From NCBI GenBank assembly GCA_017457085.1, contig JAFTID010000075.1:1-41008 (forward strand): DNA of 41,008 bases. Direction: 5' to 3'. The translations under genes and the position numbers were made by a program. The notes under the pieces are model-generated. The model was not told the DNA's origin. It saw only the letters and a list, made by a program, of their open reading frames with translations, and searched no databases. Shown here in pieces: positions 154-1,408 of this stretch. Source of the DNA: Phascolarctobacterium sp. (GTDB lineage: Bacteria > Bacillota > Negativicutes > Acidaminococcales > Acidaminococcaceae). The first letter of the stretch is position 1. Every line of letters starts with the position of its first letter.

Positions 154-216
154 TCTGAGGACATTGCCAAAATTGAAAGCTCAGTTGTAGTTATAGAGTG
201 AAAGGAGGTGATACGC

Positions 217-795
217 TTGCTGGTAACAAACCCGGTAACGATTACACACCAAGAACTGCACATGCTTGGTTTAAGGGCGAAAGGCAAAATCAAACACCTT
301 TACCTGCACTGGACTGCAGGCTACTATGGTCAAGCCTTTAGCGATTACCACATCAACATTGACAAGGACGGCGAAATTTATTTGACCTGCCATGAGCTGT
401 ACCAACCGAAGCGCCATACTTTTATGCGCAACGAGGACGGCATCGGGATTGCACTGTGTTGTGGTGTAGGGGCTAGCTTTTCCGGAAAAGGTCCCGATGA
501 CATTGATTATGGCGAATGCCCACCAACCTTGATGCAGATTGAAAAGGCGGCACAGGTTATCGCAGTTTTAGCGGACGCGTTGGAACTGCCCATTGAATTT
601 AGTGCTGTCGCTACCCACGCAGAAGTTGCCATCGTTGATGGTTATGGACCTTTAAGCCGCGATGAGCAAAAGCGTTGGGATTTATGGTTCCTGCCTGGTA
701 CGCCCGGTAACGCCGATTACAGATTAGGTGGCGTAACCTTGCGTAAGAAGGCACTTTGGTACAAAGAATTATTTGACCGCAAGATTGCGGCTTGA
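217..795 (+). CDS. N-acetylmuramoyl-L-alanine amidase, phage-lysin type (Amidase_2/PGRP fold)
   Basis: A 192-residue protein that most likely cuts the bond between N-acetylmuramic acid and L-alanine in peptidoglycan. Amidase_2 features are visible: LYLHWTAG near the N terminus supplies the first zinc histidine, a YHI segment follows, and ATHAE about two thirds along supplies another histidine. There is no signal peptide, so it would need a holin or another export route, as phage lysins do. An open frame begins at GTG 208, but the strong Shine-Dalgarno aggagg (203-208) overlaps that codon, so TTG 217 with an 8-nt gap is the better start. It is followed closely by DUF1659 and DUF2922 genes, suggesting a domesticated or prophage-derived cassette. 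Family is fairly sure; biological role is open. Confidence 0.8.
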   Translation: MLVTNPVTITHQELHMLGLRAKGKIKHLYLHWTAGYYGQAFSDYHINIDKDGEIYLTCHELYQPKRHTFMRNEDGIGIALCCGVGASFSGKGPDDIDYGECPPTLMQIEKAAQVIAVLADALELPIEFSAVATHAEVAIVDGYGPLSRDEQKRWDLWFLPGTPGNADYRLGGVTLRKKALWYKELFDRKIAA

Positions 796-812: not shown

Positions 813-1037
813 ATGAATGTAGAACAAATTTTGATTAGACGTAGTTTGGTAATTAATGTGGAGGACGGTTTCAATGCTGATGGCAGTGTGAAGACTAAAA
901 GCCGTACCTACAGCGACATCAAGGAAACTGCAGAACTGGAAGGCTTGTACAATGCAGGCAATGCTCTTGCAGGATTGATGGCAAACACTTTGTCCAGCAT
1001 CATGCTCAGCGACAGAAGCGAACTTGCCGAAGCATAA
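813..1037 (+). CDS. DUF1659 family small protein
   Basis: A 74-residue protein matching the pattern of DUF1659: about 70 residues, a basic N-terminal strand region, a segment of the form FNADGSVKTKSRTYSDIK, then a helix with NAGNALAGL and a C-terminal polar end. It has no signal peptide or membrane segment. The Shine-Dalgarno aaaggag (796-802) stands about 10 nt before the ATG. It lies 17 nt after the amidase and before a 22-codon ORF and a DUF2922 gene. DUF1659 and DUF2922 genes are often neighbours in Firmicutes and neither has a firmly known function. I infer one transcript with the amidase. Confidence 0.75.
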   Translation: MNVEQILIRRSLVINVEDGFNADGSVKTKSRTYSDIKETAELEGLYNAGNALAGLMANTLSSIMLSDRSELAEA

Positions 1038-1048
1038 GGTGAATGCCT

Positions 1049-1117
1049 ATGTGGAATAAGTTTTGGCATGCAGTAGCACGCATCTTACTGAAGCTGATTG
1101 CTTGGGAACGTAAATAA
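1049..1117 (+). CDS. 22-residue amphipathic peptide between DUF1659 and DUF2922 genes
   Basis: A very short ORF starting ATG 1049 and ending TAA 1117, beginning MWNKFWHAVARILLK. It has a plausible Shine-Dalgarno, aaggtga (1036-1042), 6 nt ahead. The peptide holds three Trp, four Lys/Arg plus a terminal Lys, and a run of aliphatic residues spaced like one face of a helix, so it could lie in or across a membrane. Its place directly between two small genes with similar ribosome sites, and the absence of any other feature in this gap, argue that it is translated. Function is unknown; a holin-like, leader or toxic peptide are all guesses. Confidence 0.5.
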   Translation: MWNKFWHAVARILLKLIAWERK

Positions 1118-1195: not shown

Positions 1196-1408
1196 ATGGA
1201 AAAGATTTTAGAATTGGTTTTTAAAAATGAAGACGGCGATACCAAGGTTGTAACTGTTGTGGATCCTCGTGAGGGCATTACTGCCGAAGAAGCAAATGAA
1301 GCAATGCAGATTATCATTGCCGCAGATGTTTTTGAAACTAGCGGGGGCAAGCTTGTAGAAATTGTGGAAGCACGCCTGCGCATTACCCAAGTAACCGTTT
1401 TGCAATAA
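1196..1408 (+). CDS. DUF2922 family small protein
   Basis: A 70-residue protein with the DUF2922 pattern: KILELVFKNEDGDTK at the N terminus, then VDPREGITAEEANEAMQIII and ETSGGKLVEIVEARLRITQV. No signal peptide or membrane span is seen. The frame is open from GTG 1184, but aaggtg (1181-1186) reads as the Shine-Dalgarno and places the start at ATG 1196. It is the last gene of the amidase - DUF1659 - small peptide - DUF2922 series and is followed by a terminator. No biochemical role is established for the family. Confidence 0.75.
   Translation: MEKILELVFKNEDGDTKVVTVVDPREGITAEEANEAMQIIIAADVFETSGGKLVEIVEARLRITQVTVLQ

What the first reader, a model, noticed from the sequence alone, without database searches (positions are those of the whole stretch)
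1049..1117. Unannotated 22-residue amphipathic peptide gene
Below usual gene-calling length, but it has an ATG, a good ribosome site at right spacing, a Trp/Lys-rich amphipathic composition and a fixed place between DUF1659 and DUF2922 genes. Downstream of a lysin-type amidase such a peptide could be a membrane partner.
Basis: partly seen in the sequence, partly recalled or inferred. Interest (0 to 1): 0.5.

Follow-up and report, generated by a model that had tools for sequence, protein, structure and literature searches.

The report
Conserved 22-residue peptide in lysis-like cassette
A gut bacterium related to Phascolarctobacterium carries several copies of a real but overlooked 22-amino-acid, probably membrane-seeking peptide gene inside a small sigma-factor/cell-wall-amidase cassette, in genomes that lack the holin-like protein usually found there.

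Summary
The ORF exists as described and is a real gene. It occurs 12 times in the 4 of 4 genomes searched of its genus (uncultured Phascolarctobacterium relatives), each time between DUF1659 and DUF2922. It evolves under purifying selection on amino acids: dN/dS 0.07, against 0.17 and 0.13 for its neighbours and above 1.8 in the two other forward frames; 0 of 1000 column permutations reach its pN/pS. The start is ATG 1049. It is predicted to be a cationic amphipathic helix, has no match in Pfam, NCBIfam or PHROGs and none in 376 other genomes of the class.

Elsewhere in the family the cassette is typically amidase (endolysin-like), DUF1659, DUF2922, YvrJ; PHROGs labels YvrJ a holin. YvrJ is in 43 of 59 family genomes but in none of the 4 with the peptide. 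Best reading: the peptide is the membrane-acting member of a sigma-controlled holin/endolysin-like cassette, standing in for YvrJ. That function is inferred. Seven of 12 copies have only an amidase stub, and 21 YvrJ-less loci elsewhere in the class have no such peptide.

The parts
1049..1117 (+). 22-aa amphipathic peptide gene MWNKFWHAVARILLKLIAWERK (stop included; alternative in-frame ATG at 1043 not conserved)
1036..1041 (+). Shine-Dalgarno-like AAGGTG overlapping the DUF1659 stop; SD-like motif in 5 of 12 copies
   Evidence: sequence
813..1037 (+). DUF1659 gene (PF07872), predicted beta-beta-alpha-beta
1196..1408 (+). DUF2922 gene (PF11148), predicted beta-beta-alpha-beta
208..795 (+). Endolysin-like Amidase_2 gene (true start may be TTG 217)
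   Evidence: Pfam E 3.6e-7; PHROG 5867 endolysin E 1e-28; phage hits
165..205 (+). Promoter-like element TGCCAAAA...TATAGAGTGAAAGG, the window's copy of a motif found upstream of related cassettes
   Evidence: no chance control run

Best explanation
The ORF is a genuine translated micro-gene of this genus. It makes a leaderless, cationic, Trp-rich amphipathic helix that lies on or inserts into the cytoplasmic membrane. It is expressed right after DUF1659, by its own SD or by reinitiation, as part of a sigma-factor-associated holin/endolysin-like cassette (sigma70-like gene, amidase or amidase stub, DUF1659, peptide, DUF2922). In this genus it fills the membrane-acting role that the holin-like YvrJ fills in related genera: perturbing the membrane so that the amidase, in cis or in trans, and perhaps the small DUF proteins can reach the wall or leave the cell. 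SHOWN: the gene, its selection, its place, the cassette, the absence of YvrJ in the same genomes. INFERRED: membrane binding, permeabilisation, control by the sigma-like protein, cooperation with the amidase, replacement of YvrJ.
For: 12 copies, 4 of 4 genus genomes. dN/dS 0.072 and 0 of 1000 column permutations. Amphipathic helix with peak at 100 degrees and charge +4 to +5 in the five variants tested. YvrJ in 43 of 59 family genomes, 0 of the 4 peptide genomes; in 0 of 11 g1 pairs with fetched flanks (L049-L059, one of them, L050, with only 133 nt after DUF2922), against a YvrJ -1 to 33 nt after DUF2922 in most other family pairs and 65 to 617 nt in a few. YvrJ matches PHROG 4898 'holin' in 4 of 4 sequences tested, E 9.4e-7 to 1.2e-3. 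Amidase is endolysin-like. A sigma70-like ORF lies upstream in 8 of 8 g1 loci with enough upstream DNA (L050-L052, L054, L055, L057-L059; two of the ORFs, in L052 and L054, are short); of five scanned, three pass a Pfam sigma-70 region 4 cut-off. Precedents seen as passages: the UviA sigma / UviB holin / amidase modules and the short-TM-plus-amphipathic-helix holin TpeE in PMC9527704; yvrJ transcribed by SigO-RsoA in B. subtilis in PMC8103513.
Against: Seven of 12 copies have only a ~44-codon amidase stub, so a cis partnership is not general; each genome does hold at least one full-length amidase copy. No detectable homology between peptide and YvrJ (hhalign probability 0.1), and the peptide lies before DUF2922 while YvrJ lies after it. 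Twenty-one YvrJ-less loci elsewhere in the class carry no comparable gap ORF, so YvrJ can be lost without such a replacement; the swap in g1 is a single evolutionary event. The peptide has no transmembrane-length hydrophobic run (sequence), unlike known holins. In the family outside g1 YvrJ is present with or without a detected amidase, so amidase-YvrJ co-occurrence adds little. The window contig starts before any sigma gene, so the sigma link is seen only in sister cassettes.
Confidence: 0.4

Rival explanations
1. The peptide is a soluble or membrane-docking subunit that binds DUF1659 (and perhaps DUF2922) in a small assembly; its helix packs on the DUF proteins rather than permeabilising the membrane.
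For: Its start lies 10-14 nt after the DUF1659 stop in 12 of 12 copies, while the distance from its stop to the DUF2922 ATG ranges from 15 to 155 nt. Seven copies lack an SD, which suggests coupling to DUF1659. Genus g15 has an unrelated, conserved 53-57 aa ORF in the same gap.
Against: Three Trp plus a strong cationic face is more typical of membrane-active helices (recalled, general knowledge); most gaps read in other genera hold no such peptide.
Confidence: 0.22
2. It is a secreted or released antimicrobial or signalling peptide (leaderless bacteriocin or phenol-soluble-modulin type) carried as cargo of the sigma/amidase cassette.
For: Leaderless, cationic, Trp-rich amphipathic helix; multi-copy cassettes, those with upstream DNA each with their own sigma-like ORF; holin/endolysin modules associated with bacteriocins without signal peptides are described (PMC9527704 passage).
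Against: No neighbour beyond the cassette and its regulators is shared by most g1 copies, so there is no common immunity or export gene; one locus (L052) has an ABC-ATPase-like protein about 3.4 kb downstream on the other strand (read by eye). Immunity genes were not searched for specifically. Sequence is strongly constrained across copies, whereas bacteriocins usually diversify (recalled).
Confidence: 0.15
3. It is a regulatory upstream ORF or leader whose translation controls DUF2922 or mRNA stability; the peptide itself has no role.
For: Very short; sits between two genes; SD absent in 7 copies.
Against: Selection acts on amino acids rather than nucleotides; the distance to DUF2922 is not conserved (15-155 nt).
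Confidence: 0.05
4. Chance ORF preserved because the repeated cassettes are recent copies or kept alike by gene conversion.
For: Multi-copy cassettes within genomes.
Against: Synonymous sites in the peptide are as diverged as in its neighbours (pS 0.625 against 0.533 and 0.538) while amino acids stay nearly fixed.
Confidence: 0.02

Closest known systems
YvrJ family (PF12841; PHROG 4898 'holin')
   Same: Very short product next to DUF2922 in the same kind of cassette; presumed membrane-acting; present in most family genomes, which lack the peptide.
   Different: YvrJ is about 50 aa with a GFP motif and a hydrophobic segment; it lies after DUF2922. The peptide is 22 aa, lies before DUF2922, and shows no profile similarity.
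UviA/UviB/amidase modules of Clostridium (passage in PMC9527704)
   Same: Dedicated sigma factor, small membrane protein and N-acetylmuramoyl-L-alanine amidase near one another.
   Different: Here the extra members are DUF1659 and DUF2922 instead of a bacteriocin, and the membrane member would be a bare amphipathic helix.
SigO-RsoA regulon of Bacillus subtilis (yvrI-yvrHa, yvrJ; passage in PMC8103513)
   Same: A yvrJ gene under an unusual sigma factor.
   Different: No DUF1659-DUF2922-amidase cassette is mentioned in the passage; no 22-aa peptide.
Leaderless amphipathic peptides (phenol-soluble modulins, aureocin-type bacteriocins; recalled, not searched)
   Same: Short, leaderless, amphipathic, often cationic.
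   Different: No sequence relation tested; setting is an endolysin-like cassette.

Membership tests
YvrJ (PF12841) | HMM match above cut-off | tested here: not met
   Pfam scan of the 24-aa form gives 0 families; 0 of 4 peptide genomes match PF12841; hhalign probability 0.1
YvrJ (PF12841) | Placed after DUF2922 | tested here: not met
   Peptide lies between DUF1659 and DUF2922 in 12 of 12 copies
Holin (functional class) | At least one transmembrane-length hydrophobic segment | tested here: not met
   Read from the sequence: no run of more than four residues without a charged residue, His or Asn; mean Eisenberg hydrophobicity 0.08. No TM predictor was run
Holin (functional class) | Encoded beside an endolysin | tested here: inconclusive
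   Full-length endolysin-like amidase in 5 of 12 copies, ~44-codon stub in 7 of 12
Holin (functional class) | Permeabilises the cytoplasmic membrane | not testable with these tools
   needs an experiment
Sigma/holin/endolysin release module (UviA-UviB type) | Sigma-like gene in the cassette | tested here: met
   Sigma-70 region 4 over the Pfam cut-off in 3 of 5 g1 loci scanned, below it in 2; sigma70-ECF over the NCBIfam cut-off in 1 of 5. Not visible in the window itself (contig start)
Sigma/holin/endolysin release module (UviA-UviB type) | Known cargo toxin or bacteriocin | tested here: inconclusive
   DUF1659 and DUF2922 have no known function; no PADLOC match for either; structure matches weak
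Leaderless bacteriocin / PSM | Extracellular antimicrobial or lytic activity | not testable with these tools
   needs an experiment

The most novel reading that the evidence does not exclude
A bare 22-residue amphipathic helix has displaced a holin-like protein as the membrane-opening part of a chromosomal, sigma-controlled release cassette that has multiplied in one gut genus, with promoters that differ between groups of cassettes and, in most copies, an amidase worn down to a selected ~44-residue stub. It would be among the smallest holin-like proteins.
Probability: 0.2. Interest if true: 0.75.

Novelty: new variant of a known kind. Interest (0 to 1): 0.5.

Why it matters
It shows that a gene far below usual gene-calling length can show lower dN/dS than its longer neighbours, and it ties three little-studied families (DUF1659, DUF2922, YvrJ) to an endolysin-like amidase and a sigma-like gene. 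The peptide-instead-of-YvrJ pattern in four genomes makes a testable prediction about what YvrJ does. Full-text searches of the held library for DUF1659 or DUF2922 returned 1 paper and for YvrJ 5 papers, none with the term in title or abstract, and 'YvrJ family' none; apart from passages of one of the five I saw only the listings. The cassette appears little described in that library.

Tried and rejected
Homology of the peptide to YvrJ: hhalign probability 0.1, rejected. Phage origin of the peptide: a scan of viral contigs found 22 pattern matches and no relative; DUF2922 in viral contigs none confirmed; DUF2922 and YvrJ queries against phage records no match, although PHROGs holds families matching both DUFs. 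Plasmids: one Peribacillus DUF2922. Defence system: no PADLOC match for amidase, DUF1659, DUF2922 or sigma-like protein. Homology of DUF1659 to DUF2922: both predicted beta-beta-alpha-beta, but profile comparison gives probability 1.2, so not claimed. Fold searches: no match at E <= 0.001 for DUF1659 in PDB and viral libraries or DUF2922 in PDB; best VIA-align Z for DUF1659 is 5.2, to phi29 p6, 65 residues, rmsd 4.4, a level the tool calls common. Sequence search of solved structures: nothing below E 0.5. Phylum-wide search with the peptide profile: 18 of 397 other genomes match at E 9.5e-4 to 0.095; all 18 matches are partial and 7 hold stops; treated as chance. Origin of the peptide from the DUF2922 start read in another frame: 12-15 of the first 18 bases agree, little beyond; no chance control, left open.

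One search listed only gap ORFs with an SD-like motif, which most g1 copies lack; I therefore repeated the reading without that filter on its 19 YvrJ-less loci plus two more, L141 and L152: no comparable ORF in 21 of 21. The amidase model used is built from Acidaminococcaceae and finds almost nothing in other families, and three loci (L030/L061, L034/L062, L045/L063) are the same place fetched twice, so its counts (50/33/20/1) are rough and are not used as independent evidence. In one search the distances to DUF2922 run to the first possible start of its frame; one search gives the distances to its ATG.

Full report
OBSERVATION. Window 1049-1117 encodes MWNKFWHAVARILLKLIAWERK, with AAGGTG at 1036-1041 ahead of it and DUF1659 and DUF2922 genes on either side. 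An in-frame ATG at 1043 exists but is private to the window copy. Pfam, NCBIfam and PHROGs have no match for the 24-aa form.

IS IT A GENE? The window's own genome (G000, 1.9 Mb, 90 contigs) has five such cassettes, and the genus has 12 peptide copies in 4 of 4 genomes: 5, 2, 3 and 2. The 12 copies are the 12 DUF2922 loci with upstream DNA; a thirteenth DUF2922 (G002:C32) is cut by its contig end. Eight distinct peptide sequences differ conservatively: H/R at 7, A/G at 8, R/Q at 11, I/L at 12, L/M/V at 14, A/M/Y at 18, K/R at 22; W2, N3, K4, F5, W6, V9, A10, L13, K15, L16, I17, W19, E20 and R21 are invariant. Pairwise dN/dS is 0.072 in frame against 1.8 and 2.2 in the two other forward frames; the antisense frames give 3.5, 0.21 and 2.2, the low one presumably because its third positions fall on those of the sense frame. 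The last 50 codons of DUF1659 and last 61 of DUF2922 give 0.171 and 0.127. Permuting the alignment columns 1000 times never gave as low a pN/pS, and third positions vary most (5/5/16 of 21). This is protein-level purifying selection.

START AND TRANSLATION. ATG at 1049 is kept in 11 of 12 copies; in L014 the start moved two codons upstream. Five copies have an SD-like motif, and these are the 5 with a full-length amidase; the 7 without one have the amidase stub. The start lies 10-14 nt after the DUF1659 stop in 12 of 12 copies, so translation by reinitiation is likely in those 7 (inference).

THE PEPTIDE. Its hydrophobic moment peaks at 100 degrees (alpha helix); 407 of 20000 shuffles of its residues reach it, 148-237 for four other g1 variants; charge +4 to +5. 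It has no transmembrane-length hydrophobic stretch (sequence; no predictor run). So it is expected to bind membranes at the surface or to insert as an oligomer (inference).

RANGE. At E <= 0.01 the peptide is in 4 of 59 family genomes and 4 of 380 class genomes, all of the one genus. A draw of 398 genomes of the phylum, with the profile, gave outside G000 only 18 weak, partial matches.

THE CASSETTE. DUF2922 is in 49 of 59 family genomes, 17 of 18 genera, and in most loci read it follows DUF1659. YvrJ is in 43 of 59 genomes, 15 of 18 genera, in most pairs -1 to 33 nt after DUF2922. The 6 DUF2922 genomes without YvrJ are the 4 peptide genomes and two incomplete ones (63% and 60% complete). Many family loci also have an Amidase_2-type gene of the window's kind, which is related to phage endolysins, and 8 of 8 g1 loci with enough upstream DNA have a divergent sigma70-like ORF, several with XRE-type regulators beyond it. 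In the window itself the contig begins 207 bases before the amidase ORF, so no sigma gene is seen. Four YvrJ proteins tested all match PHROG 4898, 'holin'. So the family cassette reads as endolysin-like amidase, DUF1659, DUF2922, holin-like YvrJ, and genus g1 has the peptide and no YvrJ.

HOW IT PROBABLY WORKS. The layout resembles UviA/UviB/amidase modules (passage in PMC9527704), and in B. subtilis yvrJ is transcribed by SigO-RsoA (passage in PMC8103513). I therefore read the peptide as the membrane-acting part of a release or lysis-like cassette that stands in for YvrJ. Steps shown: gene, selection, position, missing YvrJ. Steps inferred: membrane action, sigma control, cooperation with amidase, replacement.

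AGAINST. (a) Seven of 12 cassettes have only an N-terminal amidase stub, itself conserved: dN/dS 0.092 over 6 of the 7. A holin role would then need the full amidase in trans; each of the 4 genomes has at least one full-length copy. (b) In 21 YvrJ-less loci of other families the gap holds no comparable peptide; YvrJ is dispensable elsewhere. (c) The swap is one event in one genus. (d) Holins normally have transmembrane helices. (e) Peptide and YvrJ are not detectably related and lie on opposite sides of DUF2922.

OTHER GAP ORFS. Genus g15 has a different conserved ORF there (53-57 aa; over 28 codons pS 0.77, pN 0.15, three genomes). Genus g18 has MKLFWKILLHIIGGKIWKKY overlapping the DUF2922 start, but its two genomes are too alike to test (64 of 67 gap bases equal) and its helical moment is low (18154 of 20000 shuffles reach it). 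One g14 locus has a 33-aa amphipathic ORF (L045), untested. The gap may be a slot for accessory small proteins.

VERDICT. Real, new, genus-restricted micro-gene; membrane-partner role plausible but unproven.

Noticed in passing
L049-L054, L056 (upstream of DUF1659): In 7 of 12 g1 cassettes the amidase is reduced to a conserved ~44-codon N-terminal stub ending KFLF (dN/dS 0.092 over 6 of the 7), suggesting a selected function without the catalytic domain.
   Followed up: partly
L050-L052, L054-L059 upstream of the cassettes; window 165-205: An inverted repeat precedes 9 of 9 g1 cassettes examined apart from the window copy; a promoter-like pattern (TGCCG...TATAGTGAGAGG) covers its right arm in 5 of the 9 and also occurs in the window. 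The middle matches within a cassette but differs between groups of cassettes. The window copy shows only the right-hand element (no chance control).
   Followed up: partly
L095, L096, L102 (gap between DUF1659 and DUF2922): Genus g15 carries a conserved 53-57 aa ORF (DLKNLLQLVIKAGIEQGILG...) with a good SD in the same gap, not recognisably like the g1 peptide.
   Followed up: partly
L030, L034: Genus g18 has a 20-aa Trp/Lys ORF with SD in the gap whose end overlaps the DUF2922 start; conservation not testable with two near-identical genomes.
   Followed up: partly
L173, downstream of DUF2922: The only amidase-positive, YvrJ-negative locus outside g1 with enough flank has a 56-aa hydrophobic ORF between DUF2922 and the amidase, perhaps another holin-like replacement; no Pfam or PHROG match.
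   Followed up: partly
1812-2457: Toxin-antitoxin-like pair (PF05973 Gp49-like protein followed by an XRE HTH protein) downstream of the cassette.
   Followed up: no
1052-1069 against the start of DUF2922: Of the 18 bases after the peptide's start codon, 12-15 agree with the start of DUF2922 read in another frame (15 consecutive bases in L013); origin by duplication is possible but unproven.
   Followed up: partly
L116 47-334: One g1 DUF2922 gene (G002:C32) has an internal duplication of about 26 residues.
   Followed up: no
L050, L052, L054: Large proteins with a shared N-terminal signal-like sequence, one with an autotransporter beta-domain, are divergently encoded beyond the regulators of three g1 cassettes.
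   Followed up: no
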